The notes beneath the pieces were generated by a model. That model saw only the letters and a program-made list of their open reading frames with translations, was not told the DNA's origin and ran no database searches. Position numbers and translations under genes: made by a program. A stretch of 41,092 bases of DNA from a virus: positions 1 through 41,092 of IMG/VR virus record IMGVR_UViG_3300046796_000084; one strand, given 5' to 3'. The first letter of the stretch is position 1. Each line of letters starts with the position of its first letter. This document shows, piece by piece, positions 3,136 to 23,637 of the stretch.

Positions 3136-3546
3136 ATGAATACAACAACAAAAACTTGCAATGACCATGAATTAGCTAACTACATCGGAACTAAGCTGAT
3201 AAAAGCCAAGGTACTGACCCGTGGAGAGTTTCACGATCTCGCGGGCACAACTTTGCCAGCGGGTGAAGACGGCGACGATGAAGGTTTTCTTGTCGTACAC
3301 ATAGGTTATGCCCCAAATCTTCCGGGGTATGAAGGCTATGTTAGCTGGCTGTCCAAAGCGCAGTTCGTGAAGGCTTACCATCGTACAGACGGCCTCAGTT
3401 TTGGCTTGGCTGTTGAAGCGGTACGCAAGGGCAAGAAGATCGCCCGTGCAGGATGGGCAGCTAGTAAACATTTGGCGTCGAATGACGCTGCATGGACTGT
3501 TACTAAAGCCGATATCCTTGCAGAAGATTGGAAGGTCGTAAGCTAA
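3136..3546 (+). CDS. Two-part protein ending in a shortened DUF2829 (Tad2-like) domain
   Basis: A 136-aa protein. Residues about 12-82 (YIGTKLIKAKVLTRGEF, DDEGFLVVH, GYVSWLSKAQFVKAYH) form a module that I recognise as commonly preceding DUF2829 in phage proteins. Residues about 86-136 resemble DUF2829, the family of the anti-Thoeris protein Tad2: LSFGLAVEAVRKGKKIARAGW at the start and DILAEDWKVV at the end. The middle of the domain, about 25-35 residues that include the usual PWLASQTD segment, is missing, so ligand binding may be altered or lost. It follows the portal gene with an AGGAG site. The family link is confident; the anti-defence role is inferred. Confidence 0.7.
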   Translation: MNTTTKTCNDHELANYIGTKLIKAKVLTRGEFHDLAGTTLPAGEDGDDEGFLVVHIGYAPNLPGYEGYVSWLSKAQFVKAYHRTDGLSFGLAVEAVRKGKKIARAGWAASKHLASNDAAWTVTKADILAEDWKVVS

Positions 3547-3547
3547 G

Positions 3548-3652
3548 GTGGAAGGTGCCCCAGACGGGGCGTTGATCAAGAGGGAGGTTCAAAAACTCTT
3601 TATCAACGGCGATAGAATCTCAGAGAAATCCATCACACATCTGGAGCAATAA
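3548..3652 (+). CDS. Possible 34-aa micro-ORF (weak)
   Basis: An open frame from GTG 3548 to TAA 3652 fills most of the gap between the first Tad2-like gene and the Bbp19-like gene. It would encode a charged 34-aa peptide ending KSITHLEQ. A GGGAGG lies inside it at about 3591, and a TTG at 3572 is another possible start. A GCCCC-AGAC-GGGGC hairpin sits at 3557-3570 without a following T-run. No homology is recognised, and the gap could equally be untranslated. Confidence 0.2.
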   Translation: MEGAPDGALIKREVQKLFINGDRISEKSITHLEQ

Positions 3653-3670
3653 TATTTTAGCACTATCTTT

Positions 3671-3955
3671 ATGGCCCCAAAGAAATTCGTAGAACCGCCA
3701 GCGTGTAACCCCGCCCCGTATGAGCTACCGGATATCTCAGCGCTACAAGCGCTGGCGGCAGGAGCGGCGGATTCTGAACAACAGAAGCGCGCGCTCGATT
3801 GGGTCATTACCCACGCCGCCGGGACCTACGATCTCGAGTATCGGAGCGACGCACGGGATCATGCTTTTGTCAGCGGTAGGCGCTTTGTGGGCCTACAAAT
3901 CGTGAAGATGTTGAAGTTAAATTTGATGAAATTCAAGGAGAACAAACAGTCATAA
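3671..3955 (+). CDS. Bbp19-like phage protein
   Basis: A 94-aa protein. The core of about 45 residues, RALDWVITHAAGTYDLEYR followed by DARDHAFVSGRRFVGLQIVKML, matches the family named after Bbp19 of Bordetella phage BPP-1: an aromatic/Asp-rich turn, then H-x-x-A-F-x-x-G-R-R leading into an amphipathic helix. The role is unknown; in relatives it lies in the head gene region, as here. The start has a poor ribosome site (GGAGC about 22 nt upstream). An in-frame stop at 3650 rules out a longer ATG start, so translation may be weak or coupled. Confidence 0.6.
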   Translation: MAPKKFVEPPACNPAPYELPDISALQALAAGAADSEQQKRALDWVITHAAGTYDLEYRSDARDHAFVSGRRFVGLQIVKMLKLNLMKFKENKQS

Positions 3956-4039
3956 ATGAACCATCTGGTAGATGTGGCCGACGGCTTTCGTAAAACCGGC
4001 CGTTGGGACTATAAGTGGTGCCGCCGGAGCGCCTTTTAA
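3956..4039 (+). CDS. Possible 27-aa micro-ORF (weak)
   Basis: ATG 3956 directly abuts the stop of the Bbp19-like gene and opens a 27-aa frame that is rich in aromatic and basic residues (WDYKWCRR near the end). The nearest AGGAG is about 17 nt upstream, so it would depend on translational coupling. Nothing similar is recognised. Confidence 0.2.
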   Translation: MNHLVDVADGFRKTGRWDYKWCRRSAF

Positions 4040-4074
4040 TCTACCAAATCCGGCATAAATTTAAGGAGATTAAA

Positions 4075-4263
4075 ATGCCTGAATTCAAACCGGGTACCGT
4101 CGTGAAACTCCCGTCTTCTGATCAGTTAATGACGGTGCAACAAGTACGAAAGCACTTCTTAGGTGATGAATGTAGAACGATCCAATGTATTTGGATAACC
4201 GAGGGGCTTCTCAGATCAGGCGAGTTTCCTGAGACTGTGTTGAAGGTCGTGGAATTGAACTGA
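4075..4263 (+). CDS. DUF2158 / YodC-like small protein
   Basis: A 62-aa protein whose pattern fits DUF2158 (YodC-like): F-x-x-G-x-V-V-K-L followed by MTVQQV, then IQCIWI and a final GEFPETVLKVV strand. These are small single-domain beta-rich proteins of unknown function found in bacteria and phages. The start at 4075 is preceded by AAGGAGATTAAA, which is decisive over an upstream in-frame ATG at 4015 that has no ribosome site. It lies between a Bbp19-like gene and a Tad2-like gene, in what looks like an accessory cluster inserted between portal and scaffold. Confidence 0.6.
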   Translation: MPEFKPGTVVKLPSSDQLMTVQQVRKHFLGDECRTIQCIWITEGLLRSGEFPETVLKVVELN

Positions 4264-4268
4264 AAAAC

Positions 4269-4370
4269 TTGGGCTACTTTCTGACCGGGATGTTTATCGG
4301 CACGACGATCGTGCTGGTGTGTAAAGCCGTAGAACTTTATTTTATTTTAAGACTGATTTATAACTACTAG
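4269..4370 (+). CDS. Possible tiny membrane protein
   Basis: A short frame open from 4233 to a TAG at 4370, with TTG 4269 or ATG 4290 as the start, encodes 33 or 26 residues. The product is strongly hydrophobic (YFLTGMFIGTTIVLV), then ends in KAVELYFILRLIYNY, which looks like a single transmembrane helix. The frame lies in the gap between the DUF2158 and second Tad2-like genes. The ribosome site is weak, so coupling from the DUF2158 stop at 4261-4263 would be needed. A holin-like or accessory membrane role is conceivable but has no support beyond hydrophobicity. Confidence 0.4.
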   Translation: MGYFLTGMFIGTTIVLVCKAVELYFILRLIYNY

Positions 4371-4381
4371 GAGCATTAAAA

Positions 4382-4630
4382 ATGAACAGAGATTTATCAT
4401 TTGGGGGCGCTATTGCCTCACTGCGTAAAGGGGACAAGGTCGCGCGTAAAGGATGGAATGGGAAGGGCTTGTGGCTTGAGTTACAACTGCCGGACGCCAA
4501 CAGTAAGATGACTTTGCCTTACATCTACATCAACTATCCGAGTGACGCGGTTAATACCCCCGGAGCGCGGGTTCCTTGGTTGGCCAGCCAAACAGACATG
4601 CTTACAGACGATTGGCACGTCGTAGCTTAA
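4382..4630 (+). CDS. DUF2829 protein, Tad2-like anti-Thoeris candidate
   Basis: An 82-aa full-length DUF2829 protein: LSFGGAIASLRKGDKVARKGW, then NGKGLWLELQL, a short loop with YIYINYP, and the hallmark PWLASQTDMLTDDWHVV at the C terminus. Tad2, a characterised member of this family, binds and sequesters the cyclic ADP-ribose-type signal (gcADPR) made by Thoeris ThsB, so that ThsA stays inactive. This copy keeps every segment I recognise as conserved and has the usual family length, so it is the best candidate of the three here for an active sponge. A TAGGAGC site lies 8 nt upstream. Family membership is confident; Thoeris inhibition is inference from the family. Confidence 0.8.
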   Translation: MNRDLSFGGAIASLRKGDKVARKGWNGKGLWLELQLPDANSKMTLPYIYINYPSDAVNTPGARVPWLASQTDMLTDDWHVVA

Positions 4631-4660
4631 ACCCGATTCCATAACAACTAGGAGCATTAA

Positions 4661-5584
4661 ATGCCAGACGAAAACGCAGCACCCGAAACGACGGGGGACC
4701 CTGCGGGAACAGCAGAAGCCACCGGAACCGAAACGACAACAGAAACGGGCACCACTACCTCAACAGAAACATCCGCAGCAGGAACGCCAACTACGACAGA
4801 AGCGCCCGTCTACGAGGATTGGGCAACCAAGCGCTCGAAGTACGCTAACGGCGACGCCAAGCTATTAGCCCGGCTATCTCGATACTCCTCCGAGAAGGAT
4901 GCGATGGATGCCCTTATCGCAGCGCAGAACCGGATATCGAGTGGGGAACTCATGTCCGCGCTGCCGGAGAACCCAACGCCGGAAGAACTTCAAAACTGGC
5001 GCGTGGAGAACGGGCTACCGGCGACGCCAAACGATTACGGCGTCAAGTTGCCGGACGGTACCGATCCGATAACGGCTGCGGACTTCTTCAAGACCGCGCA
5101 CGACATGAACATGACCCCGGCGCAGGTATCGAAGATGGTCGAGTGGCGTCAGGCGATTGATCAGAAGATGGCTGACGATCGCGCGGAGCAGGATCGTGCT
5201 TCGCAAAACGCGGGGGAGGAAGTTCTCCGAAAGGATTGGGGCAGCGAGTACAAGCTGAACATCAATCTGATAACCGGCTTGCTTGATACCGCTCCCGCTG
5301 GCGTCAAGGATCAAATCATGGGAGGCCGGTTGGCCGACGGCACCAAGATCGGGAACGATCCGGCCACGTTGCGCTGGCTGGCTTCCCTCTCGCGCGAAAT
5401 CAATCCGATGGCGACCGTGGTGCCCGGTTCCGGCGTAAATTCTGCGCAAGCGATCGAGAACGAACTGCAGAACATGCAGAAGATGATGGGCGATCCTACA
5501 TCGGAATACTGGAAGGGGCCAAAGGCCGAGGCGATGCAGCAGCGGTACCGCGATCTCCTCACGGTTCAGAAAAAAGTGGCATAA
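4661..5584 (+). CDS. Capsid scaffolding protein
   Basis: A 307-aa acidic protein directly upstream of the major capsid gene, as expected for a podovirus scaffold. Residues 1-50 are a low-complexity Thr/Glu/Ala tail. The remainder is helical and charged: YANGDAKLLARLSRYSSEKD, then ALIAAQNRISSGEL, the PENPTPEELQNWRVENGLP segment typical of phage capsid-assembly scaffolds, and a helical C terminus (ALQQR-type: AEAMQQRYRDLLTVQKKVA) that would bind the capsid. It would direct procapsid assembly and then leave. A TAGGAGC site sits 7 nt upstream, the same site sequence as for the preceding Tad2-like gene. Confidence 0.8.
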   Translation: MPDENAAPETTGDPAGTAEATGTETTTETGTTTSTETSAAGTPTTTEAPVYEDWATKRSKYANGDAKLLARLSRYSSEKDAMDALIAAQNRISSGELMSALPENPTPEELQNWRVENGLPATPNDYGVKLPDGTDPITAADFFKTAHDMNMTPAQVSKMVEWRQAIDQKMADDRAEQDRASQNAGEEVLRKDWGSEYKLNINLITGLLDTAPAGVKDQIMGGRLADGTKIGNDPATLRWLASLSREINPMATVVPGSGVNSAQAIENELQNMQKMMGDPTSEYWKGPKAEAMQQRYRDLLTVQKKVA

Positions 5585-5588
5585 GGTA

Positions 5589-5617
5589 TTGACAACCCTA
5601 GCTAGTCGGCGTACTTT
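5589..5617 (+). promoter_or_regulatory. Candidate sigma-70 promoter before capsid gene
   Basis: A perfect TTGACA at 5589-5594 is followed after 17 nt by TACTTT at 5612-5617, a weak -10. It lies just after the scaffold stop in the 174-nt gap before the major capsid gene and could boost capsid expression. The weak -10 makes this tentative. Confidence 0.35.
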
Positions 5618-5638
5618 CGCGGCACAACACCGACTAGC
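5601..5638 (+). repeat. 9-bp inverted repeat in capsid gene leader
   Basis: GCTAGTCGG at 5601-5609 and CCGACTAGC at 5630-5638 form a perfect 9-bp stem with a 20-nt loop. No T-run follows, so it is not a standard terminator. It overlaps the candidate promoter and could be an operator, an RNA-processing site or a stabiliser of the capsid mRNA. The rest of the gap, to 5758, shows only the AUGGAGGG ribosome site of the capsid gene. Confidence 0.55.
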
Positions 5639-5758
5639 AAGGCTCCATAGGTTTTGTTTGACTAATCCTCCCCGGAGGGCACCTAGTTAAGCAGGTCAGC
5701 GTGGATACCCCAAGCGAACGGATATGAAGCTATATCTTTAACTTATGGAGGGTAGACC

Positions 5759-6592
5759 ATGTCTGACCACGCATATCAAACGCAGTACCGACAAGAATTT
5801 ATCGCCGGGTTCGAGCAAAGGCAATCCTTAGTTCGCAACACCGTCACTACCGAGTCCGTCATAAAGGGTAATCAGGCCGTATTTCTGGTCGCTGACTCCG
5901 GCAACGCACAGGCTGTAACCCGTGGGTTGAATGGCCTGATCCCTGCTCGTTCCGATAACCTGAACCAGAACACCGCTACCTTGCTTGAATGGCACGATCT
6001 GGTACGTCGTACTCAGTTCAATATCTTCGCGTCCCAAGGCGATGGCCGCAGGATCATGCAAGAAACCACGATGGCCGTTATCAATCGTAAAGTCGATGAG
6101 GACATCATCAACGAGTTGGCTACCGCTACGCAAGACACCGGCGCGACACAAACAGGTAGCTTGGCGCTGGTCATGTACGCCCAAGCTGTCCTCGGTAATA
6201 ACGCTGTCCCTTTGGATGGCAATATCTCCGCGCTGATTACCCCCGCGTTCCATGCGTACTTGATGCAGACCAAGGAATTCGCAAGCGTGGATTATGTGAA
6301 CAACAAACCGTTCACGAACCAGTTGTTACAATACCGTTGGGCAGGGATCAACTTCATCGTTCACCCTAACCTTCCGGGCAAGGGCACCGCTGCGGAGAAG
6401 ACCTTCATGTATCACAAGAACGCCATCGGCCAAGCCATTAACACCGGCGGAATCGATACAGCGGTTGACTACGAGAAAGAGCACGACTACTCGTATGCGC
6501 GTAGCACCGTGTTCATGGGTTCCAAGCTGCTTCAGAACTCAGGCGTTGTACAGATGCTCCATGACGGTTCTGCCTTTAACCCTAACCTTTAA
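5759..6592 (+). CDS. Major capsid protein
   Basis: A 277-aa protein that forms the icosahedral shell. It matches the short podoviral capsid protein type (as in BPP-1-like phages) that begins with a helical MSDHAYQTQYRQEFIAGFEQRQS segment. That is followed by a beta-rich part with GLIPARSDN, LEWHDLVRRTQFNIFASQGD and the axial helix region MQETTMAVINRKVDEDIINEL. A C-terminal domain carries WAGINFIVHPNLPG and the ending FNPNL. It follows the scaffold gene and has a GGAGGG ribosome site. The 174-nt leader with promoter-like and hairpin sequences, and a terminator one gene downstream, suggest separately boosted expression. Confidence 0.85.
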   Translation: MSDHAYQTQYRQEFIAGFEQRQSLVRNTVTTESVIKGNQAVFLVADSGNAQAVTRGLNGLIPARSDNLNQNTATLLEWHDLVRRTQFNIFASQGDGRRIMQETTMAVINRKVDEDIINELATATQDTGATQTGSLALVMYAQAVLGNNAVPLDGNISALITPAFHAYLMQTKEFASVDYVNNKPFTNQLLQYRWAGINFIVHPNLPGKGTAAEKTFMYHKNAIGQAINTGGIDTAVDYEKEHDYSYARSTVFMGSKLLQNSGVVQMLHDGSAFNPNL

Positions 6593-6604
6593 GGAGAACA
6601 CGAC

Positions 6605-6991
6605 ATGACATACGCATTAGACAATCCACCAGCGCTTATCAGCTTCCCGATCGCAGGACCGGGTCGTATCTGGATTTATCGTTCCACCGATCCCGCTGCA
6701 ACCGTCGCCGGTGTTGATTACATCATCAACGGCCAGCAATTAGGCATGCAGGTCGGTGACATCGTGATCGTAACGGATACCGATACTGGAACGGCGATCA
6801 CGTTCCATAGAGTCGCGGTAGCTTCTACCACTACGAAAGGGGTCACTCTTTCCGCTGGTACTGCGATCGCCGCAGACGTGGCAGCGTCTCCTCCTGTTGG
6901 AGAGCAGCCCACCCCCGGAAACGAACTTCCAGAAGGGCCACCTCCTGTGATCGATAACACGCTTCCGCCAGAGGAACCTCCTGCCGAGTAA
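6605..6991 (+). CDS. Capsid-associated protein, possible cement or decoration protein
   Basis: A 128-aa protein directly after the capsid gene. Residues about 10-100 look like a small beta-sandwich (YIINGQQLGMQVGDIVIVTD, ITFHRVAVASTTTKGVTLSAG). The last 35 residues are Pro/Glu-rich and probably extended (NELPEGPPPV, NTLPPEEPP). Many podoviruses have a capsid-stabilising or head-fibre protein in this position, so a decoration role is plausible but is inference. The AAGGAG site is strong, and a terminator follows the stop, so it is likely made at capsid-like levels. Confidence 0.6.
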   Translation: MTYALDNPPALISFPIAGPGRIWIYRSTDPAATVAGVDYIINGQQLGMQVGDIVIVTDTDTGTAITFHRVAVASTTTKGVTLSAGTAIAADVAASPPVGEQPTPGNELPEGPPPVIDNTLPPEEPPAE

Positions 6992-7025
6992 CAACTGCTT
7001 TCTTGTCTGTCATGGTAGGATATTC

Positions 7026-7052
7026 GGGCGCTCTTAAAACAGCGCCCGTTTT
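7026..7052 (+). terminator. Rho-independent terminator after capsid genes
   Basis: A 7-bp stem GGGCGCT/AGCGCCC (7026-7032 with 7041-7047) around an 8-nt loop is followed by GTTTTC. It would end or attenuate transcription after the capsid and capsid-associated genes, separating them from the tail genes. Confidence 0.75.
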
Positions 7053-7075
7053 CATACAATTAGAGGAAGATGAAC

Positions 7076-7573
7076 ATGACCGAAACCGCACAAACAGAAG
7101 AAGCAAAAGTCCCTGTTAAGAAAACCATCAAGACCTTAGCCCCCAAGCTGACTCCCGACCGTTTCAAGGCGGCTGAATTTGTCCGCGTTATCTACGCTGT
7201 TACCCCCGCTGTAAATACCGAACTAGATCATATTTTGAAGCCTGAATACTGGTCGCATGTCGCAGCCAGCTTGAGTCCTTTGTCGCGGATCGAAGTCGTG
7301 GCTGAAGACAACTCATGGTTCGCTGAGTTGATCGTTCTGTCCAGTGGCCTGAATTGGGCGAAGGTCAAGCTGCTCAGGTACATTCCTCTTGTGGATGGGT
7401 TCCCCGAGGAGAAGAAGCAGCAGGAGGACGATTTTGAAATACTCTACGCCGGGGTGAAGGCGCGTTTCCGCGTGATCCGCAAGAGTGACCGCGCGACGGT
7501 GAAGGAAGGTTTCCCGTCCCATCAGGAAGCGCTCAAGTGGGTGCGGGAGTACGAAATCAGCGCGCTTATCTAG
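7076..7573 (+). CDS. Hypothetical protein between capsid and tail genes
   Basis: A 165-aa soluble protein. The N-terminal 25 residues are Lys/Thr/Glu-rich. The rest is mixed alpha/beta: FVRVIYAVTPAVNTELDHIL, then a WFAELIVLSSGLNWAKVKLL stretch and a C-terminal FEILYAGVKARFRVIRKSD followed by SHQEALKWVREYEIS. The final 45 residues read like a small substrate-binding fold (beta-beta-helix) in which a repeated sequence element pairs with an aligned helix. ATG 7076 is preferred to ATG 7070 because AGAGGA is 8 nt from the former and only 2 nt from the latter. A minor virion or head-completion role is possible; I do not recognise the family. Confidence 0.55.
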   Translation: MTETAQTEEAKVPVKKTIKTLAPKLTPDRFKAAEFVRVIYAVTPAVNTELDHILKPEYWSHVAASLSPLSRIEVVAEDNSWFAELIVLSSGLNWAKVKLLRYIPLVDGFPEEKKQQEDDFEILYAGVKARFRVIRKSDRATVKEGFPSHQEALKWVREYEISALI

Positions 7574-7582
7574 GAGACAGGC

Positions 7583-7870
7583 ATGGTTAATGGGAAACGT
7601 AAAGAAGTAGCCAAGTGCGGTCCGGCGGGGGCGCTTACAGTGGAAGACCTTCATAAACTGATTGATAGGGACGATTATCACCAGTTTGTAGGCACGCATA
7701 CCGTGGCTTGTTGCCTGACTCTAAAGAACGGTTTTACCGTTGTAGGCGAAAGCACGATGTACGCCCCTGAACTTTTTAGTTATGAAATAGCGTTTAAACG
7801 CGCCTTTGATAGCGCTGTTGAAAAATTGTGGGTACTCGAAAGGTACCGGCTGCAACGCGCTAAGTGCTAA
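7583..7870 (+). CDS. N4 gp49 / Sf6 gp66 family protein
   Basis: A 95-aa protein matching the widespread phage family named for N4 gp49 and Sf6 gene 66 (Pfam Phage_gp49_66). The signature is visible as HTVACCLTLKNGFTVVGES, then a Tyr/Pro loop (MYAPELFSYEIAFKRAFD) and a final KLWVLERYRLQ. Members are small, have unknown function and occur in many proteobacterial phages, usually next to structural genes. AGGAGACAGGC precedes the ATG, and only 15 nt separate it from the adaptor gene. Confidence 0.8.
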   Translation: MVNGKRKEVAKCGPAGALTVEDLHKLIDRDDYHQFVGTHTVACCLTLKNGFTVVGESTMYAPELFSYEIAFKRAFDSAVEKLWVLERYRLQRAKC

Positions 7871-7885
7871 ACAAGGAGAACTGCC

Positions 7886-8524
7886 ATGGCCAATGATAAG
7901 TTAAGCTTATACAACGATGCCCTGAACATGATGGGGGAGCGTACTCTTGCTTCCCTCAATGAGAACAGGGAGCCTCGCCGGGTACTTGACGTCAACTGGC
8001 CAAAGGCGGTTAAGTATTGCCTTGAGCAGGGGCAGTGGAAGTTCGCGCTTCGTACTTCCAAACTGACCTTCTCCCCGAATGTTAATCCTGCTTTCGGCTA
8101 TCGCCACGCTTTCGAGCGCCCGGATGATTGTGTGCGTACCGCCAAGATGTGTACCGATGAATACTTGAACGTGCCCTTGTTGAGCTACGGCGAGGAAGCG
8201 GGATGGTGGTTCGCTGATCTTGAGGAGATTTTCACAAGCTATGTCTCCGATCACGTTGACTTTGGCAATGACCTCGGTAACTGGCCGGAGACTTTTACTA
8301 AATATGTGGCCACTCATCTTGCCTCTGAATCCGCCTTGCGGATCACCCAAAGTGAGAAGATGGTTCTGAAGCTTGAAAAAGACCTCAAGACTGCGAAGAA
8401 AAACGCTCTCTCGAAGGACGCCCTGCAAGGCCCGACGCAGTTTTTACCCCAAGGGACTTGGGTCGGTTCACGGCAGGGTGATCGCAGAGGGGATCGTGGA
8501 AGCAGGAGTAGACTAATTGGCTAG
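7886..8524 (+). CDS. Head-tail adaptor (tail tubular protein A, T7 gp11-like)
   Basis: A 212-aa protein of the T7 gp11 type. It starts KLSLYNDALNMMGERTLASL, followed by LDVNWPKAVKYCLEQGQWKFA, the conserved C-x-E-x-x-x-W/F segment of these adaptors. A C-terminal helix-rich end runs KYVATHLASESALRITQSEK. Twelve copies would form the ring under the portal that bridges it to the nozzle. It overlaps the nozzle gene by 8 nt. The basic, Arg/Gly-rich C-terminal tail (SRQGDRRGDRGSRSR) is notable and may contact DNA or the portal. The ribosome site is AAGGAGAAC. Confidence 0.85.
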   Translation: MANDKLSLYNDALNMMGERTLASLNENREPRRVLDVNWPKAVKYCLEQGQWKFALRTSKLTFSPNVNPAFGYRHAFERPDDCVRTAKMCTDEYLNVPLLSYGEEAGWWFADLEEIFTSYVSDHVDFGNDLGNWPETFTKYVATHLASESALRITQSEKMVLKLEKDLKTAKKNALSKDALQGPTQFLPQGTWVGSRQGDRRGDRGSRSRLIG

Positions 8525-11189: not shown

Positions 11190-11200
11190 GGGGAAATTAA

Positions 11201-11803: not shown

Positions 11804-11812
11804 GAAACAGAC

Positions 11813-15172: not shown

Positions 15173-18100
15173 TGGCCGATATCGATTATCTGTCAGTGCT
15201 GGATCAGGTCACGGGCGGCTCCGCTACCGGCACCACTACAGAACCTTCGGCTGGTTTGCCTCCGGTTAAGGCTCCCGTCCTTCCTGTAACCGCACCGGCT
15301 GAAACTGCCATGGCTCCGGTACCTCGTACAGGCGCGATCGATTACCTGTCCATTCTGGACGAGGTCAGCAGCGACGTAAAAAAGAACACTCCCGATCCTC
15401 AGAAGATACACGAAGCCATTCTGACCTCTGCCGGGAAGAACCCTGACGAGGAGGCCAAGCGCCGGGAGATCGCCCGGCAGCTAGGCGTGGAGCCGGGTTC
15501 CTTACCGGCTTCCACGAAGGAAGCGCAGGAGATGCTGTTCCGCAAGAACAACGATCCTGCGGAGATGGCGCAGAAGACTCCGGCCACCGCGAAGTGGATG
15601 GAGAACAACGCAGCCGTCGGTCGGGGGGATGAAGGCTCCCTCAAGAAGATGGAGGTGGACTACAACATAATGAAGTATTTCGGTCAGACCTTGGAAACTG
15701 GAGGGCACAACATCGCCGCCGCAGCTACCAAGACCGCATCGATGCTTTTGAACTTCGTGGGTATGGGCGGCGACGCTGTTCTATCCGATGAGCAGATCGC
15801 GATCATCACCAAAGGGGATAAGGCTGAGTTTGAGAGGATACGTGCCGCCCTTCACCCGCTTGAGGAGATCGCCAGAAGTCAACAGGCGAAGGGCGAAGCA
15901 GTCATGCAAGGCGTGGACCCGGAGATGAAGGCAAGAACCGCTCCGCTCGAATACTTTACGCTCGACCCCCGGAAGGCTGCGTACTTCGACGGGGTCAAAG
16001 TGTTGGGCGATGTCTTCCAATCCCTGCCAAGTAGCTTGATGTTGATGGTCGCGGGGGCGGCAACAAGGGGCGCTGCGATCGCTGCGCGGACAAAGGCGCT
16101 GCTTGAGGGGGCTACATTAACGGAGGCGCGGGATTTAGCCATCGCCGCTGCCGTTAAAGCGGGTACCGCGATCGCGGGGATAGGTGAGGGCTTGGTGGCC
16201 TACGGTCAGCAGTCCACCAGCGTTGCATCCAAGATCGAGAAAATGGCTTTTGACAGAATCGCCAAGTCACCGGAGTTTCAGGAATACATCGCGCTCGGGT
16301 ATGACCCGGAGGTTGCAAAAACGCTCACGGCGGGTCGGGCTGGTGAAGCTTCCGGCTTGATGAGTCTGGTCACGACCGGTGCGATCGCTGGCGTCGGCGG
16401 TAGGTTCTTGGGCAAGATCATAGGCGAGGGCGGCGCTCTCTTACCCCGGGCGCTCAAGGGTGGCGCGATCGAGGGCGGAGTAGAAGCACCCCAAAGCGGC
16501 TTCGAGCAGTTTGAAGAAAACGTCGCGACCAAGATTTACGCAAACCCGGCGCAATCACTCACGGAGAACGTAGCTGAAGCCACGGCGCAGGGCGCGATCC
16601 TCGGTCCCGTGGTCGGGGGACCTATGGCCGGGGCGTTCGGCAGCAATGTCTCGAAGGCGGATCAGGCACAGCAGGACCGTGCGACGCTGGAGGCGATCGT
16701 GAGCGCTTCAGCGGACAACGCGATCCTTTCCCGGTCGCCCCAAGCTTTCCAGAACTTCATCGACTTGATGACCGAGGAAGGGAAGATGGCCGAGGTGTAC
16801 GTCGACACTGAAACCTTGGGCGAGATATTCAGGCAGACGGGCGTGAACGGGGAAGAACTGGCAAAGACCATGCCGGATGTTTTCGCGCAGATGAACGACC
16901 CCTTGAACGAAGGCGGCTCCATTCGGATCACGACCGGCGATCTGATCGCCAACGTCAGAACCCCCGAGGTTCTTGACTCGATACTGAACAACTCCAGAAT
17001 CACGCCCGAGGGGATGACGTTCATCGAATCGGAGGTTTTCTTCCAGACGTTCAAGGAACAGGCAGCGGTCGCCGCAGCGAAGCAGGACTCACGGAAACAG
17101 CGCGAGATCGAACTGCGGGATATCCGCAACGAGATCGCAGACCAGCTAGTTGCTACCGGGCGCTACGACAAGTTCACGGCTAGAGCCAATGCCATACCGC
17201 TCTCAGAGTTCTACGCGGTGCAGTCACAACGTTTTGGGATGTCTCCGGCGGAGATGTTTGCTCAGTACCCTTATCAGGCACAGGCGGGAACTACAGCGCA
17301 AACTGAAGGGTTTGATCAAGCTGATAGAACACAAGCAAAAGTCGGTGGGGAAACCGCAGGGTCAAATGGGTACTTCTATAAAGGCGGACAGTTTTTACCG
17401 AGCACGAAAGCCGAACCGGGTAAATGGAAAGTCGGTAAAAAATGGATCGTATCTGGAAAAGAACTCGTCCCCCCCGGTGTTTTCGAAAATCAACCAACGC
17501 CCTTCAGCCGGTCTTTATTCTCGATGATCCAAGGTTTCGCTGTAACGGGCGATTCAGGTAAGTTAGAACTTAACCCTCGTCTTACCCAAGTTAACGGCGA
17601 CACCCTCATAAGGCCCGGGGTGAAAGGCGTGTTGGGCAAGGAAGAACTCTCGTTACAAGAGATGTTCGACGCCTACAACAACGGTCAAAGGTGGTTCGAC
17701 GTTAACCCTGACGCTGAGATAACTACTTCAAACATCCTTAAACAGGGCGATCTTCTTGGAGGATATGATCCTAGCGGGATGATGACGACCTTCTTCGAGG
17801 GCGCGAACCTGTCCACTGTGATCCATGAGAGCGGGCACTTCTACCTCGACGTCATGGGGAAACTCGCCGCCCGGCCAGATGCTCCGCAAACAGTAATCAA
17901 CGATTTCAACGCGATCATGGATTGGTTCGGGGTGACGGCTGAACAATGGAACTCGATGTCCGTCGCTGAACAGACCCCGCACCATGAGCAGTTTGCGGAG
18001 TCCTTCGAGTTGTGGATGCTGGAGGGCAAAGCGCCGACGCTCAAGATGCAGCCGGTGTTCGTGCGCTTTAAGAACTGGATGTTGAGGGTCTACCAATCGG

Positions 18101-21100
18101 CGGAGGCTTTCCTCCGGTCACATCCTGCGGCCGGTAATCTGAACGACGAAGTGCGCGCTGTCTTCTCCCGCCTGATCGCAAGCGAGGAAGCGGTTGCGGA
18201 GGCCGAGGCCGCGCGCGGATATGTGCCCATCTTCCAGACGGCTGAACAGGCCGGGATGACAGAAGCCGAATACGCGGAGTATCTACGGCTCGATGAGGCC
18301 GCGACCCAAGAGGCCGTGGACACGGTACAGCGCCGCGCCATGCGCGACATGAAGTGGCTATCCAACGCCCGGAGCAAGGTACTGAAGCGTATCCAAGCGG
18401 AGGCCAAGGCGCTCCGCGACGTAATCCGGGCAGAGGTGACACAGGAGGTAATGAACGAGCCGATCAATCTTGCGCGGCATTTCCTGCGTACCGGCGAGAT
18501 GATCGATGCGGCTACGGGCACCGTAACCCGCGCTGACAATTTCAAACTGAATACCGCCGCCATGAAGGAACTCTCCCCCGACGGGAAGATACCGCCGTAC
18601 ATGAAGCACTTGGTATCGCCCGACGGCGTTCACCCGAACTTGGTGGCCTCCATGTTCGACTTCGATTCGGCGGAGCAACTATTCTTCAATCTGGTCACGG
18701 CGGAAGACGCGCAGACCAAGATCGACGGGCTGACCGACGCGCGCATGCTGGAGCGCCACGGGGAGATGGTCGACGCCCAAGCGATCGAGGAAACCGTCAA
18801 CGCTGCCATAGTGAACGAAGCCCGTACACGGTTCTTGGCCACCGGGTTGAGTATCCTCCTGAACGGCAGTGTTCCTGCGTCGCAGCTTGCCAAAGCCGCG
18901 AAGATCGCGGCGCAGGACGCGATCGCCAAGGTCAAGGTGCAGGACTTGCGCCCCAAGCAATACGAAGCGGCAGAATCCCGGGCGAACAAGGAAGCGCTGA
19001 AGTATGCAGCTTCAGACCCTGCACGGGCGATCCGCGCGCAGCGGACAGCGATAATCAACAACGCGCTCTACAAGGAAGCCATCGCCGTGCAGGAGGAGGT
19101 CGAGAACGACATCGTGCGCATGAAGGCCATGTCGCGTCCCTCCGCGCAGAAGGCCATGGGCGGGGAACATCTCATCCAACTTAATGCCCTGCTTGAACGC
19201 TTCGGCGTCAAGAGCCGTCAGACGTCGCAGACCGCAGTCGCACCCCGTCGTGATCTCGGGACGTACATACAGGCTACGGCTGACCAGAACGCGGCTATCG
19301 CGCCTACCGTCGCGCCGTGGATCGTCAGCGAACAGATATCGCAAGACTACAACACGCTCTCGATCACGGAGTTCCGCGAGTTGATGGACGCCGTGAAATC
19401 GATCGGTATCCTCGCAAGGCGGGAGCGCGATCAGTATATAAAAATCCGCGACCAGACCTTCGCGGAGGACAAGGCGACGGTACTGCAGCGCCTCCGGCAG
19501 TTCCACGGGAAACTATTCAATCCGAACGGCTCGATCAAAAAGGAGACTTATCAGAGCACTTCACAGAAGTCAGGGCTTTCGAGATTGGCCGGTGAGTTCG
19601 GCGCGCTGTTGATGAACGCAGAGGCCATCGTTCATGCGTTGGAAGGAGGTGAGTTCGGGGCGCTGCATGAGATGTTGCTCGGGCGCATGAGTGAGCGGAC
19701 TGAGTGGAAGGCTACCCGGATGGAGGGTTTGCTCAAGAAGATCAAGGAACTTTACAAACCGTACAACCGTCTTGATCGCCGGGCGTTCAGCCGGGCGAAC
19801 ATCGTTCCCACTACGCTCAAGGACGCCAACGGCGCTCCGATCGTGCTGACCCGCGAGGAGGTCACAGTCATAGCGCTCCTGCACGGTAACGTCGAGGGAC
19901 GGCAGCGCATGGAGGCCGCTTACGGCTGGAATGAGGACAAGCAACGGGAGATCATCGATCTGCTCGATGCGCGCGACGTCAAGCTTGTAAACGGGATATG
20001 GGAGATATTCGATAAGGATATCTGGCCTGAACTGGCGGCGCTGGATGAGCGCACCCGGGGGAAGGCAGCGCCCAAGGTAGAGGCCATGCCTTACCAGACC
20101 AAGAACGGGGGCATGACCGGCGGATATTTCAAGTTGAAATACGACTCGGAGCGGGGCGCAGCAGCCACCGGCGCTGGGGCAATCGATCAGATGCTCGGAG
20201 GCGACGCCGGAGGGATGGCTCCACGCACAGCGCAAGGCGCAAGTATCGCGCGGGTAGAAACCAGCAACAAACCGCCCAAGCTGACCATGAATATCTTTGC
20301 CGATACCGTGAGCGAAACCGTACATGACATCGCCTTCCGGGAGGCCGTGGCGGATACCTACAGGCTCCTGAAGGATGAGGATATCCAGACGGTTATCAAG
20401 AGGGCGTCATCGGAAAAAGAATACCGCGCCTTGGTCGGGCGTATCGAGAGCATAGCTACGCGCGCGCATCAACCGAACTCACCGTTCGAGCGCTTCTTCA
20501 ATCAGGCGCGCAAGAACACGGTCACGGTATTGTTGTCCGGCTTCTATACCGCATTGCAGAACGTGCTCAATTTGGCTCCTTTGGCTGCAAGAGTCGGCGT
20601 GGCCAACACAGCGCTGGAGGCCATGCGAATGACCAGCGTACTCGGTCCTGCGGCATACCGCTTCGCCGTGGAGAGTTCACACTACCTGCGCAACCGGCAC
20701 TTGAGTTACGACCGCGCCTTGCAGGAGGAGTCGAAGAAGCTGACCATCAACGAGCCTTTGATGCCAGCCATGTCGACTTGGTTGTGGCTAATGGGCAAGA
20801 CTGACCAGCTAATGAGCGCGATCGCATGGAATGCCGCGTACAAGAAAGGCATGCGGGACTACGCGAACAACCACGACAAGGCCGTGTTGTTTGCCGATCA
20901 TGTTGTCCGGCAGACGCAAGGCTCCGGGCGGGAACTGGATATCTCGCAGATGCAGGAAGGTCCGTATCGCCAATTGCTGACCATGTTCTACAGCTTCGCC
21001 GGTTCTCAGTTGAACCTGCAAATCCGGGCTGGCGTCATCGCCAAACGGAACTGGAACGAGGGGGAAAAACTCAAGGCTATTATGGTATTTATGAAGACCT

Positions 21101-21549
21101 TGGCCATGGTCGTGATACTCCCGGCGATTCTGAACGATCTGGCCTTGAGTCTTATGCGGGGTGATCCGGGGGAGGAAGAACCAGAGGATTGGGTCAAGCG
21201 CTTCGGGCGGGACGCCATGCTGTACCAGATGAGTTTCATCCCGGTCTTGCGCGAGATCGGCCCTTATGTGTGGCGCAGTTTCGATGACGATCTCGCTTCC
21301 TTCGGATACAAGATGTCGCCGGTCGTATCGGCGGTAGAAGGGGCGCGGCTCGGTGTGAAATCCGGTATAGACCTTTACAAGGATGAGGGCGATGAAAAGA
21401 GCGTAGGCAACGCTATCATGGGCGTAAGCTACCTGCTCGGACTGCCCGGTACCCCGATCAAGAACGCCGTGGTCGGCACCGGCGCGTTCATGGACGATAC
21501 CGGCGGACCGCAGGGAATACTATTCGGCCCACCTAAAGAGCGGAAATAA
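15172..21549 (+). CDS. Giant ejection protein with HExxH metallopeptidase-like motif
   Basis: A 2125-aa protein, the largest in the window, in the position of T7 gp16-type ejection proteins. A short motif occurs twice near the start: IDYLSVLDQV (residues 4-13) and IDYLSILDEV (56-65), separated by a Pro/Ala linker. Residues about 285-345 are hydrophobic and Ala-rich. HESGH at 885-889, with the downstream acidic run HHEQFAESFE (937-946), fits a zinc metallopeptidase domain of the kind carried by large polyvalent phage proteins. Long helical regions follow, then hydrophobic FMKTLAMVVILPAILNDLAL (about 1973-1992). It would be ejected ahead of the DNA and may form an inner-membrane channel; peptidase activity is inferred from the motif only. 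Confidence 0.75.
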   Translation: MADIDYLSVLDQVTGGSATGTTTEPSAGLPPVKAPVLPVTAPAETAMAPVPRTGAIDYLSILDEVSSDVKKNTPDPQKIHEAILTSAGKNPDEEAKRREIARQLGVEPGSLPASTKEAQEMLFRKNNDPAEMAQKTPATAKWMENNAAVGRGDEGSLKKMEVDYNIMKYFGQTLETGGHNIAAAATKTASMLLNFVGMGGDAVLSDEQIAIITKGDKAEFERIRAALHPLEEIARSQQAKGEAVMQGVDPEMKARTAPLEYFTLDPRKAAYFDGVKVLGDVFQSLPSSLMLMVAGAATRGAAIAARTKALLEGATLTEARDLAIAAAVKAGTAIAGIGEGLVAYGQQSTSVASKIEKMAFDRIAKSPEFQEYIALGYDPEVAKTLTAGRAGEASGLMSLVTTGAIAGVGGRFLGKIIGEGGALLPRALKGGAIEGGVEAPQSGFEQFEENVATKIYANPAQSLTENVAEATAQGAILGPVVGGPMAGAFGSNVSKADQAQQDRATLEAIVSASADNAILSRSPQAFQNFIDLMTEEGKMAEVYVDTETLGEIFRQTGVNGEELAKTMPDVFAQMNDPLNEGGSIRITTGDLIANVRTPEVLDSILNNSRITPEGMTFIESEVFFQTFKEQAAVAAAKQDSRKQREIELRDIRNEIADQLVATGRYDKFTARANAIPLSEFYAVQSQRFGMSPAEMFAQYPYQAQAGTTAQTEGFDQADRTQAKVGGETAGSNGYFYKGGQFLPSTKAEPGKWKVGKKWIVSGKELVPPGVFENQPTPFSRSLFSMIQGFAVTGDSGKLELNPRLTQVNGDTLIRPGVKGVLGKEELSLQEMFDAYNNGQRWFDVNPDAEITTSNILKQGDLLGGYDPSGMMTTFFEGANLSTVIHESGHFYLDVMGKLAARPDAPQTVINDFNAIMDWFGVTAEQWNSMSVAEQTPHHEQFAESFELWMLEGKAPTLKMQPVFVRFKNWMLRVYQSAEAFLRSHPAAGNLNDEVRAVFSRLIASEEAVAEAEAARGYVPIFQTAEQAGMTEAEYAEYLRLDEAATQEAVDTVQRRAMRDMKWLSNARSKVLKRIQAEAKALRDVIRAEVTQEVMNEPINLARHFLRTGEMIDAATGTVTRADNFKLNTAAMKELSPDGKIPPYMKHLVSPDGVHPNLVASMFDFDSAEQLFFNLVTAEDAQTKIDGLTDARMLERHGEMVDAQAIEETVNAAIVNEARTRFLATGLSILLNGSVPASQLAKAAKIAAQDAIAKVKVQDLRPKQYEAAESRANKEALKYAASDPARAIRAQRTAIINNALYKEAIAVQEEVENDIVRMKAMSRPSAQKAMGGEHLIQLNALLERFGVKSRQTSQTAVAPRRDLGTYIQATADQNAAIAPTVAPWIVSEQISQDYNTLSITEFRELMDAVKSIGILARRERDQYIKIRDQTFAEDKATVLQRLRQFHGKLFNPNGSIKKETYQSTSQKSGLSRLAGEFGALLMNAEAIVHALEGGEFGALHEMLLGRMSERTEWKATRMEGLLKKIKELYKPYNRLDRRAFSRANIVPTTLKDANGAPIVLTREEVTVIALLHGNVEGRQRMEAAYGWNEDKQREIIDLLDARDVKLVNGIWEIFDKDIWPELAALDERTRGKAAPKVEAMPYQTKNGGMTGGYFKLKYDSERGAAATGAGAIDQMLGGDAGGMAPRTAQGASIARVETSNKPPKLTMNIFADTVSETVHDIAFREAVADTYRLLKDEDIQTVIKRASSEKEYRALVGRIESIATRAHQPNSPFERFFNQARKNTVTVLLSGFYTALQNVLNLAPLAARVGVANTALEAMRMTSVLGPAAYRFAVESSHYLRNRHLSYDRALQEESKKLTINEPLMPAMSTWLWLMGKTDQLMSAIAWNAAYKKGMRDYANNHDKAVLFADHVVRQTQGSGRELDISQMQEGPYRQLLTMFYSFAGSQLNLQIRAGVIAKRNWNEGEKLKAIMVFMKTLAMVVILPAILNDLALSLMRGDPGEEEPEDWVKRFGRDAMLYQMSFIPVLREIGPYVWRSFDDDLASFGYKMSPVVSAVEGARLGVKSGIDLYKDEGDEKSVGNAIMGVSYLLGLPGTPIKNAVVGTGAFMDDTGGPQGILFGPPKERK

Positions 21550-21564
21550 CTTAAGGAGAAAATC

Positions 21565-23061
21565 ATGGCAGGACAACAGGACAGGATAGCAGGACTGATC
21601 GGAACGCTAGGGATGAAGGCTCCGTGCCGGGTGGCCAGCAATGTAAACCTAACGTTGTTCGGTGCTCAGATAGTCGATGGTGCCGGGCCATTTACGGACG
21701 GGGAACGCATACTGGTCAAGGCGCAGACCAACCCGATCGAGAACGGCATCTATCTCTATAACACCACGGCCGAGTGGGAGCGCGCGCCTGACTTCGACGG
21801 TTCGCGGGACATCATGCGCGGGACGTGCATCCCGGTTCCGGGGGGCGTTACCAACCCCAACACTCTCTGGATGCTCACTCAGCCAAATGCTCCCATCATC
21901 GGCACCTCTCCCCTTACGTTTGTATTGATCGCGGGGGCATCGTACTTAGGCAGCGGGGGCAGCGGCGGGGGAGGACAAGCCCTTAACGTCAGCCCGTTCA
22001 TGCTGACGATGCTCGATGATATCGATGCGGGGGTAGCGCGCGCAACAATCAACGCGGCCAATCTGACAGGTGACATAGGCACGGATTTCAGGGTCAGGAA
22101 CCTGTTTGTAAGGGACGCTGTCTTCCTCCCCAGCGGAAGCGTGGTGAACCCCTCCGGGTACCTCGGCCTCGGCAATAACAATCCCCTAAGCTGGCTCCAC
22201 GTTGCGGACGTAGCGACCTCTCCGAACCGGCATGCCGCTCGGATAGAGCGCGTGGCCAACCATACAGGGGGCGCAGCGGGGACGGTAGCTGCAGCCCTGC
22301 AAGTGCTGAACATCGTCCAAGCTTCCACGACGAATCGTGAGTTCGGGGTTTACTCAATACTTGAGAATTACGCGCTGGGGAACTACAACATCTCGGGGTA
22401 CTTCGGGGTAAACAAGCGCGCTGCCGGGCATTCTCAAGCGGGGGCGTTCGAGGCCAAGGACTTCACGACGCTGCCCGACCCCTCGGGGACCCTCAACGCC
22501 ATAACCGCTTCCCTGTACGCCAACGGTACAGACGCCTTCGGTACCCGTATCGGTATCGAACTGGTGACGCTCCGGGCGAACCCCGGCGGGACGATTGCGA
22601 CGATAACCGCCGGGCTACGGATCGGTGCCTACGATGGTGATCCGGGCGGGTCTTACTTCATAAACGGTATCCGGCTGAACTCCGATATGCAGACCGGGAT
22701 ACTTATTAACACCTCCGGCGCTCACACCATCCACGGTATATGGGACGCCAGCAATAAGCCCATCGGTATCAAGTTGTCCGGTACCTACAGCACCGGCGCA
22801 ATAGTTCTGAACGCCGGGGGGAAACTTCTGTTCGATCCGCAAGGTGCTTGTGTAAGCGCTAATGCCTCCTTCAAGGACATCGTCGGCTTTGAAAATTGCT
22901 GGGTAAACTTCCAACAGGGCTTCGGCGTAAGCGGCGGTGCGACCAACATCGCCGCTTCAGCTACTGCCGGGAACAGTGGGGGCCTCCCGGTGCAGACGAG
23001 CGGCTACTTGAGATTTAAGATCGATGGTGTTATCTATAAGCTGCCTTACTACAACAACTAA
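21565..23061 (+). CDS. Tail fibre or tailspike protein
   Basis: A 498-aa receptor-binding candidate. The N-terminal ~115 residues carry a common phage tail motif: PCRVASNVNLTLFGAQIVDG, then GERILVKAQTNPIENGIYLY, WERAPDFDGSRDI and NTLWML. A Gly/Ser linker (about 132-142, SGGSGGGG) leads to a beta-rich body with GYLGLGNNNPLSWLHVAD, GTRIGIELVTLRANPGGTI and GIRLNSDMQTGILINTSGAH, which look like parallel-beta or trimeric fibre repeats. No hydrolase motif is visible, so binding rather than depolymerase activity is favoured. Its place after the ejection genes and its strong TAAGGAG site fit the tail module. No reverse transcriptase or template repeat is next to it. Confidence 0.75.
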   Translation: MAGQQDRIAGLIGTLGMKAPCRVASNVNLTLFGAQIVDGAGPFTDGERILVKAQTNPIENGIYLYNTTAEWERAPDFDGSRDIMRGTCIPVPGGVTNPNTLWMLTQPNAPIIGTSPLTFVLIAGASYLGSGGSGGGGQALNVSPFMLTMLDDIDAGVARATINAANLTGDIGTDFRVRNLFVRDAVFLPSGSVVNPSGYLGLGNNNPLSWLHVADVATSPNRHAARIERVANHTGGAAGTVAAALQVLNIVQASTTNREFGVYSILENYALGNYNISGYFGVNKRAAGHSQAGAFEAKDFTTLPDPSGTLNAITASLYANGTDAFGTRIGIELVTLRANPGGTIATITAGLRIGAYDGDPGGSYFINGIRLNSDMQTGILINTSGAHTIHGIWDASNKPIGIKLSGTYSTGAIVLNAGGKLLFDPQGACVSANASFKDIVGFENCWVNFQQGFGVSGGATNIAASATAGNSGGLPVQTSGYLRFKIDGVIYKLPYYNN

Positions 23062-23071
23062 AGGAGATTAA

Positions 23072-23338
23072 ATGTTTCAGATAAATGTGACCGAGGAGGA
23101 CGTGCAATTCATTAATGAAGCAGCCAGCATCTTGATGCCGATGTATAAGGCGCAGCAGTTTTTAGGGCGGATCAATGGGCAGGTGCAAAGATGTAATCAG
23201 GAGATGCAGGAAAAAGCGAAGATGGATCAGGATGTTTTGGTCGCTGACAGAATAGCAGCGGCGCTCAAAGAAAATAACAATCGTGTCGTGGATTTTCCTC
23301 ACGGAGAAGAACATAAGCCATCGACTATTTTAGATTAG
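23072..23338 (+). CDS. Small hypothetical protein after tail fibre
   Basis: An 88-aa protein, helical and charged, without a membrane segment. It begins MFQINVTEEDVQFINEAASI, has a Gln/Met-rich middle (GQVQRCNQEMQEKAKMDQDV) and ends with a Asn/His-rich tail. The family is not recognised. Position suggests a tail-fibre assembly helper or an accessory protein. An AAAGGAG site lies 6 nt upstream, and the fibre stop is 10 nt before the ATG. Confidence 0.5.
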   Translation: MFQINVTEEDVQFINEAASILMPMYKAQQFLGRINGQVQRCNQEMQEKAKMDQDVLVADRIAAALKENNNRVVDFPHGEEHKPSTILD

Positions 23339-23355
23339 ATAGGAGAAACTAAAAC

Positions 23356-23637
23356 ATGGGTATCTTTAAAGGAACATTCGCAGGAGCAATGGACTCATTA
23401 CGCGAGGGCAAGCATGTCGCCCGGCGCGCGTGGGATGAAGACTATGGGTATCTGGAATTCGTGGCCGAGGTGCCGGAGACAGGTGCGCAGGCGCACGTTG
23501 TTCGGATCACGCCCGACGGTGAACGGCACTCTTGGCCAGCAGAAACCGTTCTCTCTTTGCCGATCACGTTTACGGCAGACGTGATCCTCGCTCACGACTA
23601 CTATGTTGTGGAAGACGAAAGCGAACCTAAGTGCTAA
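23356..23637 (+). CDS. Divergent DUF2829 (Tad2-like) protein
   Basis: A 93-aa protein with the DUF2829 outline: TFAGAMDSLREGKHVARRAW at the start, aromatic positions Y-G-Y-L-E-F, and a final TADVILAHDYYVVED that corresponds to the family's TA-DI-A-DW-VV ending. The sequence between is different from the second copy, with a longer hairpin-like stretch (VRITPDGERHSWPAE) in place of the usual PWLASQTD. It is the third family member in this window and the last plus-strand gene of the late region. It may bind a different nucleotide signal, or be an inactive relative. The stop overlaps the stop of the convergent TraR-like gene. Confidence 0.6.
   Translation: MGIFKGTFAGAMDSLREGKHVARRAWDEDYGYLEFVAEVPETGAQAHVVRITPDGERHSWPAETVLSLPITFTADVILAHDYYVVEDESEPKC

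What the first reader, a model, noticed from the sequence alone, without database searches (positions are those of the whole stretch)
3136..23637. Three DUF2829 (Tad2-like) genes in one phage
Copies at 3136-3546 (shortened domain behind a separate N-terminal module), 4382-4630 (full canonical domain) and 23356-23637 (divergent middle) share F-G-x-A-x-x-x-L-x-x-G-K-x-V-A-R-x-x-W and a D-x-L-A/T-x-D-W/Y-x-V-V ending. Tad2 sequesters the gcADPR-type Thoeris signal. Three unequal members could be sponges for different nucleotide signals, or one active sponge with decoys that host defence evolved around.
Basis: partly seen in the sequence, partly recalled or inferred. Interest (0 to 1): 0.75.

Follow-up and report, generated by a model that had tools for sequence, protein, structure and literature searches.

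The report
Phage kit for soaking up alarm signals

Summary
In detail: three Tad2-like genes lie at the stated places, and they are the top three of 957 open frames with an independent profile. They are unequal. Copy 2 (4382-4630) is a complete canonical Tad2. Copy 1 (3136-3546) is an N4 gp49-type fusion whose Tad2 domain has lost its core, both pocket loops included. Copy 3 (23356-23637) is a divergent Tad2-fold protein without the pocket motifs. A sibling phage keeps all three under purifying selection; none of 99 other sponge-gene records examined has three separate copies.

It is the most diverged of 45 genes compared between the siblings (52% identity against a median near 97%). Tad2 and Acb4 genes cluster in other phages (22 of 26 records within 1 kb).

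The N-terminal module of copy 1 is promiscuous. Other phages fuse it to Tad2, Acb4, RyR/RyDEP and crAss001_48 domains; one 456-aa frame holds four modules. Three of these partners are tested signal binders.

Best reading: a multi-part counter-signalling kit, with copy 2 and Acb4 as the probable working sponges. Nothing supports 'decoys'. No binding was tested here.

The parts
3136..3546 (+). Copy 1 (136 aa): N4 gp49-type protein, N-terminal module plus core-deleted Tad2 domain
   Evidence: PF11195 33.1 bits in two stretches; phrog_872 E 5.6e-31; AF2 pLDDT 88; 96% identical in sibling, dN/dS 0.20
3175..3387 (+). N-terminal module of copy 1 (residues 14-84; GYxSWSPK-type), no Pfam model and no PDB fold match
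   Evidence: alignment; 80 IMG/VR relatives fused to Tad2, crAss001_48 or gp49_66; fused to RyR in Yersinia phage TG1
3388..3543 (+). Tad2 remnant of copy 1: alpha1-beta1 joined directly to alpha3-beta5; about 33 residues (beta2 to beta4 and the pocket loops) missing after residue 109
   Evidence: alignment with full-length fusions; secondary structure of AF2 model; AF2 model matches Tad2 chains only weakly, E 0.01
3671..3955 (+). Bbp19-like late gene of the BPP-1-type operon (context)
   Evidence: blastp 7e-5 to Bordetella phage BPP-1 Bbp19
4075..4263 (+). Small DUF2158-like gene in the same variable cassette as copy 2
   Evidence: PF09926 16.8 bits, below cut-off; dS 1.76 to sibling
4382..4630 (+). 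Copy 2 (82 aa): complete canonical Tad2; probable working sponge
   Evidence: PF11195 73.8 bits; PDB SptTad2 E 1.6e-13, HgmTad2/AcrIIA7 8e-12, SPO1 Tad2 1e-9; dN/dS 0.07
4360..4380 (+). First copy of a 21-nt repeat (ribosome-binding leader of copy 2)
   Evidence: the repeat finder D1, 95% identical to 4641-4661
4641..4661 (+). Second copy of the 21-nt repeat (leader of the putative scaffold gene); the two flank copy 2
7583..7870 (+). Acb4-family (PF13876, Phage_gp49_66) gene: probable cyclic-dinucleotide sponge
   Evidence: PF13876 53.4 bits, cut-off 27; nearest PDB sequence 9e4w Acb4, E 0.03; 52% identical to the sibling allele, dS saturated
23356..23637 (+). Copy 3 (93 aa): divergent Tad2-fold protein without NGKG and SQxD motifs
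   Evidence: PF11195 21.7 bits; custom HMM E 5e-6; foldseek to Tad2 TM 0.76 by target; 98.9% identical in sibling, dN/dS 0.02

Best explanation
The phage carries a multi-part kit against nucleotide alarm signals, dispersed as cargo genes in a BPP-1-like late operon and downstream of the tail fibre. Copy 2 is a working Tad2 sponge: tetramers trap an ADP-ribose-type Thoeris signal in pockets built from the NGKG loop and the W-ASQTD segment. The Acb4-family gene at 7583-7870 is a second sponge, for CBASS cyclic dinucleotides. Copy 1 cannot trap a ligand the Tad2 way, because the pocket-building core has been deleted; it is kept for its N-terminal module, a building block that other phages attach to Tad2, Acb4, RyR/RyDEP and crAss001_48 domains. 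Copy 3 keeps a Tad2-like fold but not the pocket motifs, and either binds something else or has another task. Shown: homology, anatomy, purifying selection, gene linkage, domain fusions. Inferred: ligand binding, tetramers, anti-Thoeris and anti-CBASS activity, and any role of the N-terminal module.
For: Profile and structure matches of the three copies. Pocket elements as described in review PMC12043709 are present in copy 2, absent in copies 1 and 3. PF13876 is the Acb4 family, 8 of 8 tested homologs bound 3'3'-cGAMP (PMC11722364); the window has one. Acb4 is the most diverged gene between siblings, copy 2 fourth by identity and third by dS, as expected of arms-race cargo. Synteny with Bordetella phage BPP-1 shows copies 1 and 2 and Acb4 as extra genes among conserved late genes; a 21-nt repeat flanks copy 2. 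Tad2-Acb4 linkage: 22 of 26 records within 1 kb; 19 of 22 after removing near-duplicates, 1.1 expected. The N-terminal module is fused to Tad2, crAss001_48 and Acb4 (69, 10 and 4 of 80), to several in one frame, and to RyR in phages of three genera; viral RyR proteins bind or degrade 2'/3'cADPR (PMC13232231).
Against: No binding, structure or phage-challenge data for any protein of this phage. The contact residues of Tad2 could not be checked one by one (the primary structure papers are not held); only structural elements and motifs were compared. The Acb4 match to the solved Acb4 is weak by sequence (E 0.03). Tad2 genes in other phages are not regularly in late operons: portals are the commonest neighbour family, but only in about 5 of 40 loci. 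Linkage and fusion show functional association, not activity. The linkage sample was partly chosen by the N-terminal module.
Confidence: 0.66

Rival explanations
1. All three Tad2-like proteins are active sponges with different ligands.
For: All three are kept in the sibling under purifying selection (copy 1 0.20, copy 2 0.07, copy 3 0.02). Characterised Tad2s differ in ligand (gcADPR, His-ADPR, cyclic dinucleotides). Copy 3 still has a predicted Tad2 fold.
Against: Copy 1 lacks the beta2-beta4 core and both pocket loops and departs from 15 of 49 conserved positions of its family (next worst 6, median 1). Copy 3 lacks NGKG and SQxD.
Confidence: 0.13
2. Copy 1 is a partner subunit: its retained alpha1 and N-terminal module join copy 2 in a mixed oligomer, so that a one-chain N-module-Tad2 sponge has been split into two chains.
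For: Most relatives carry module and full Tad2 in one chain (69 of 80); here they are two genes 0.8 kb apart, both kept in the sibling. Tad2 dimers interlock along alpha1 (PMC12043709), which copy 1 keeps, and AF2 folds the remnant with high confidence.
Against: One lineage only; no complex was modelled; dimer-forming beta2 and alpha2 are gone; the two genes diverge at different rates (dS 0.13 versus 1.16).
Confidence: 0.12
3. Copies 1 and 3 are repurposed or fading cargo with no part in counter-defence; only copy 2 (and Acb4) matter.
For: Pocket motifs lost in both; copy 1 is the most deviant member of its family in the set examined; copy 3 has no homolog outside the sibling in IMG/VR, phage records or the genome contigs searched.
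Against: Purifying selection on both, strongest on copy 3; the remnant of copy 1 shows 10.5 synonymous against 7.5 non-synonymous changes where neutrality would give about 36 non-synonymous.
Confidence: 0.25
4. Copies 1 and 3 are decoys that distract a host defence which senses Tad2 sponges.
For: Panoptes shows that hosts can sense sponges, and SptTad2 triggered it slightly (PMC12657218).
Against: Panoptes senses ligand removal, not the sponge protein, so a protein without a pocket would not act on it; no host is known; nothing tested supports it.
Confidence: 0.03

Closest known systems
Tad2 (SPO1 gp34.65, SptTad2, HgmTad2/AcrIIA7, MoTad2; PF11195)
   Same: Copy 2: full profile match, GWNGKG and W-ASQTD segments, length; best PDB sequence match SptTad2.
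   Different: Copy 1 has lost the core; copy 3 lacks both loop motifs; neither can be called a Tad2 sponge by anatomy.
N4 gp49 family (phrog_872; N-terminal module plus Tad2)
   Same: Copy 1 has the same two-part layout and 55% identity to the nearest intact relative, L006.
   Different: Copy 1 has an internal deletion of about 33 residues or more and 15 departures at conserved positions, shared only with the sibling.
Acb4 (SPO1 gp1.3; PF13876)
   Same: 7583-7870 matches PF13876 above cut-off; nearest solved sequence is Acb4.
   Different: Weak pairwise similarity to SPO1 Acb4; ligand untested.
SPO1 (Tad2 plus Acb4) and SpaA1 (P60 plus P61) as multi-sponge phages
   Same: SPO1 carries Tad2 and Acb4 (PMC11722364); SpaA1 carries a canonical and a divergent Tad2-like gene side by side.
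   Different: Three separate Tad2-like genes plus Acb4 in one small podophage; no other record examined has three separate Tad2-like genes except the sibling.
RyDEP (viral RyR R12 domain; PF02026)
   Same: Acts on 2'/3'cADPR; in phages of Yersinia, Escherichia and Pectobacterium it is fused to the same N-terminal module as copy 1.
   Different: No RyR domain in this phage.
Bordetella phage BPP-1 (Rauchvirus)
   Same: Order TerL-GNAT-portal-Bbp19-scaffold-head-tail; DNA polymerase 57% identical.
   Different: None of the Tad2-like or Acb4 genes has a match among the BPP-1 late genes compared.

Membership tests
Tad2 (PF11195), copy 2 | Full-length profile match over the curated cut-off | tested here: met
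   73.8 bits, cut-off 25, profile 2-73
Tad2 (PF11195), copy 2 | Pocket loops: beta1-beta2 (NGKG) and beta4-alpha3 (W..SQxD) | tested here: met
   GWNGKG and PWLASQTD aligned with solved Tad2s; individual contact residues not checked
Tad2 (PF11195), copy 2 | Tetramer; binds ADPR-type or cyclic-dinucleotide signal; blocks Thoeris | not testable with these tools
   needs protein and phage assays
Tad2 (PF11195), copy 1 | Profile match over the curated cut-off | tested here: met
   33.1 bits, but as two stretches with profile 25-56 missing
Tad2 (PF11195), copy 1 | Intact core and pocket loops | tested here: not met
   beta2 to beta4 absent; AAS for NGK; VTKAD for ASQTD
Tad2 (PF11195), copy 3 | Profile match over the curated cut-off | tested here: not met
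   21.7 bits against 25; homology still significant: E 3e-4, custom HMM E 5e-6
Tad2 (PF11195), copy 3 | Tad2 fold | tested here: inconclusive
   top 21 PDB matches are Tad2, TM about 0.6 by query and 0.76 by target, but pLDDT 65 and the alignment held Tad2s
Tad2 (PF11195), copy 3 | Pocket loop motifs NGKG and SQxD | tested here: not met
   DEDYG and FTADV instead
N4 gp49 / phrog_872 (copy 1) | N-terminal module followed by Tad2 | tested here: met
   phrog_872 E 5.6e-31; N4 gp49 33% identical by tblastn
Acb4 (PF13876), 7583-7870 | Profile match over the curated cut-off | tested here: met
   53.4 bits, cut-off 27, profile 1-81
Acb4 (PF13876), 7583-7870 | Tetramer binding 3'3'-cGAMP | not testable with these tools
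   family-wide property reported for 8 of 8 homologs (PMC11722364)

The most novel reading that the evidence does not exclude
The GYxSWSPK N-terminal module is a general accessory part of phage proteins that trap or destroy nucleotide immune signals. It recurs with Tad2, Acb4 and RyDEP, so its fourth frequent partner, crAss001_48 (PF21825), is an unrecognised signal sponge family, and frames such as the 456-aa N-module-Tad2-Acb4-crAss001_48 one are single-chain sponges for several signals. Copy 1, with its Tad2 core removed, is a natural test of what the module does alone.
Probability: 0.42. Interest if true: 0.78.

Novelty: new variant of a known kind. Interest (0 to 1): 0.55.

Why it matters
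If right, one domain-fusion pattern links three separately discovered sponge families (Tad2, Acb4, RyDEP) and points to at least one more (crAss001_48) that can be tested at once with purified protein and a signal panel. It also shows that 'Tad2-like' annotation alone does not mean a working sponge: in this phage one of three copies keeps the pocket. None of the held open-access papers found in nine literature searches describes these fusions, but the primary Tad2 papers and two recent sponge papers (Tal 2026, Hadary 2025) were not available, so priority is uncertain.

Tried and rejected
Recent duplication within the phage: rejected; copy 2 is 64% identical to a Pseudomonas phage PaBG protein and copy 1 55% to an intact fusion, but the copies share only about 29-40% with each other. 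Sequencing or assembly artefact in copy 1: rejected; the same 136-aa form is in an independent sibling record. NCBIfam and PADLOC gave no match for the copies, nor PADLOC for the Acb4-family gene. Nucleotide search of phage records: no relative. Copy 3 relatives in genome contigs: none. Rule 'Tad2 genes sit in the head operon': not general. crAss001_48 as a form of Acb2: not supported; its profile finds no Acb2 among solved structures. Promoter scan of the cassette: nothing above chance. A reference to G039 for its 168-aa Acb4-Tad2 frame was taken in a wrong frame and gave no Pfam match (protein 4); the fusion there rests on both matches reporting the same 168-aa open frame length.
Full report
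WHAT WAS CLAIMED. Three DUF2829/Tad2-like genes in one phage, unequal, possibly sponges for different signals or one sponge plus decoys.

CONTEXT. The window is a whole IMG/VR virus record of 41,092 bases, without tRNAs. It begins inside what reads as the C-terminus of a large terminase and runs GNAT acetyltransferase, portal, Bbp19-like, putative scaffold, head and tail genes, then a leftward replication block. The order is that of Bordetella phage BPP-1 (terminase, GNAT, portal, Bbp19, protease/scaffold, head, tail), and its DNA polymerase is 57% identical to BPP-1's. A sibling, IMGVR_UViG_3300043473_000044 (G001, 55,741 bases, about 92-98% nucleotide identity over most of the shared length), carries all three genes. 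In the sibling the distance from copy 2 to the Acb4 gene matches the window only if the record is joined end to end, so it looks circular and the window is probably a fragment of a roughly 56-kb genome (inference). The host is unknown.

OBSERVATION CHECK. Pfam PF11195 matches copy 2 over its whole length (73.8 bits), copy 1 in two separated stretches (33.1 bits) and copy 3 weakly (21.7 bits, below the curated cut-off of 25 but E 3e-4 over the whole library). A profile built only from other phages' Tad2 domains ranks exactly these three at the top of 957 stop-to-stop frames, and copy 3 (22.8 bits) exceeds all 2000 shuffles of itself (best 7.6).

COPY 2. It matches the solved sponges SptTad2 (E 1.6e-13), HgmTad2/AcrIIA7 (8e-12) and SPO1 Tad2 (1e-9). 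It keeps GWNGKG and PWLASQTDMLTDDW, which by position correspond to the beta1-beta2 loop and the beta4-alpha3 segment that build the gcADPR pocket according to the review PMC12043709. It has a strong ribosome-binding site, and a 21-nt direct repeat shared with the leader of the next gene flanks it, like an inserted cargo gene. Between the siblings it is 89% identical with dS 1.16 against about 0.2-0.3 for neighbouring late genes, and dN/dS 0.07: an allele exchanged by recombination (inference) and kept functional.

COPY 1. It belongs to the N4 gp49 family (phrog_872, E 5.6e-31). Its relatives carry a full Tad2 after the N-terminal module; copy 1 jumps from GW-AAS straight to a shortened ending and lacks the stretch that carries beta2 to beta4. 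AF2 folds module and remnant confidently (pLDDT 88), and PDB matches are only to Tad2 and weak (E 0.01). Copy 1 departs from 15 of 49 conserved family positions (next worst 6, median 1), the YN..RGW motif of the module included. The same form is in the sibling, and the remnant evolves under constraint (10.5 synonymous against 7.5 non-synonymous changes). So it is a kept gene, not a Tad2 sponge by anatomy.

COPY 3. A Tad2 fold is likely: the top 21 PDB matches are all Tad2 chains, with the caveat of pLDDT 65 and a Tad2-seeded alignment. It lacks both loop motifs. It is 98.9% identical in the sibling with dN/dS 0.02 and has no other homolog found. Divergent Tad2 domains beside canonical ones also occur elsewhere: SpaA1 P60/P61 and single frames with a degenerate plus a canonical domain.

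HOW UNUSUAL. Of 100 IMG/VR records examined for PF11195, only the sibling has three separate Tad2-like genes; the rest have one, none, or two domains in one frame. Records may be fragments and the set was chosen by similarity to these genes, so this is a rough rate.

THE MISSED SPONGE. The gene at 7583-7870 matches PF13876 (53.4 bits, cut-off 27). The Acb4 paper identifies PF13876 as the Acb4 family, with 8 of 8 tested homologs binding 3'3'-cGAMP (PMC11722364). It is the most diverged of 45 genes compared between the siblings (52% identity, saturated dS, flanking genes 93-95%), an allele swap typical of arms-race genes (inference). Tad2 and Acb4 genes cluster: 22 of 26 records with both have them within 1 kb; after removing near-duplicates 19 of 22 against 1.1 expected. 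The sample was partly chosen by the N-terminal module, and some pairs are fusions.

THE N-TERMINAL MODULE. Eighty IMG/VR relatives of the module carry Tad2 (69), crAss001_48 (10) and PF13876 (4) domains; a few carry an unnamed WHCNIAM-type domain, and one (L159) stands alone. Multi-domain frames include module-Tad2-crAss001_48 (L160, L177), module-Acb4-Tad2 (L165), Acb4-module-crAss001_48 (L158) and a 456-aa module-Tad2-Acb4-crAss001_48 frame (L133). A search of viral structure models led to Yersinia phage TG1, where the module (hhalign probability 97%, E 1.5e-11) precedes a RyR domain (PF02026, 41 bits); 14 records of Yersinia, Escherichia and Pectobacterium phages carry that fusion. Viral RyR proteins (RyDEP) bind or degrade 2'/3'cADPR (PMC13232231). 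So three of the four named partners are tested nucleotide-signal binders, which makes crAss001_48 and the module itself candidates for the same business. The latter is inference.

MECHANISM. Copy 2 most likely removes an ADPR-type Thoeris signal and the Acb4 homolog a cyclic dinucleotide; late expression, close to head genes, would coincide with the moment some Thoeris systems sense the major head protein (PMC12043709). The late timing is inferred from gene order only, and Tad2 genes elsewhere are not regularly in late operons. Copies 1 and 3 are conserved but lack the pocket; partner subunit, module-only function or other tasks remain open. The decoy idea has no support.

VERDICT. Observation confirmed; interpretation partly supported; the stronger finding is a counter-signalling kit with a shared modular part.

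Noticed in passing
L133 3037-4257 (IMGVR_UViG_3300048913_000259): One open frame (456 aa stop to stop) carries the N-terminal module, Tad2, Acb4 (PF13876) and crAss001_48 (PF21825): a four-module putative sponge protein.
   Followed up: partly
L213 1465-2109, minus strand (Yersinia phage TG1): The same N-terminal module fused to a RyR (RyDEP-family) domain; 14 phage records carry this fusion.
   Followed up: partly
L132 and L108 (Rhodoferax phage P26218 gene 06): The module is also followed by a domain with a WHCNIAM motif that has no Pfam match.
   Followed up: no
L159 3043-3222: A stand-alone N-terminal module with no partner domain.
   Followed up: no
window 7583-7870: The Acb4-family allele is only 52% identical between two siblings whose flanking genes are 93-95% identical, which suggests allele replacement.
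   Followed up: yes
window 23072-23338: Small gene just upstream of copy 3, second most diverged between siblings (77%), no family match; possibly a lysis or another cargo gene.
   Followed up: no
window 35033-35269, minus strand: DUF551 gene overlapping its neighbour on the same strand; no tblastn match in the parts of the sibling that were fetched.
   Followed up: no
L020, L195, L199: Phage proteins with a degenerate Tad2 domain directly followed by a canonical one; in L020 and L195 an N-terminal helix-turn-helix-like region precedes them.
   Followed up: partly
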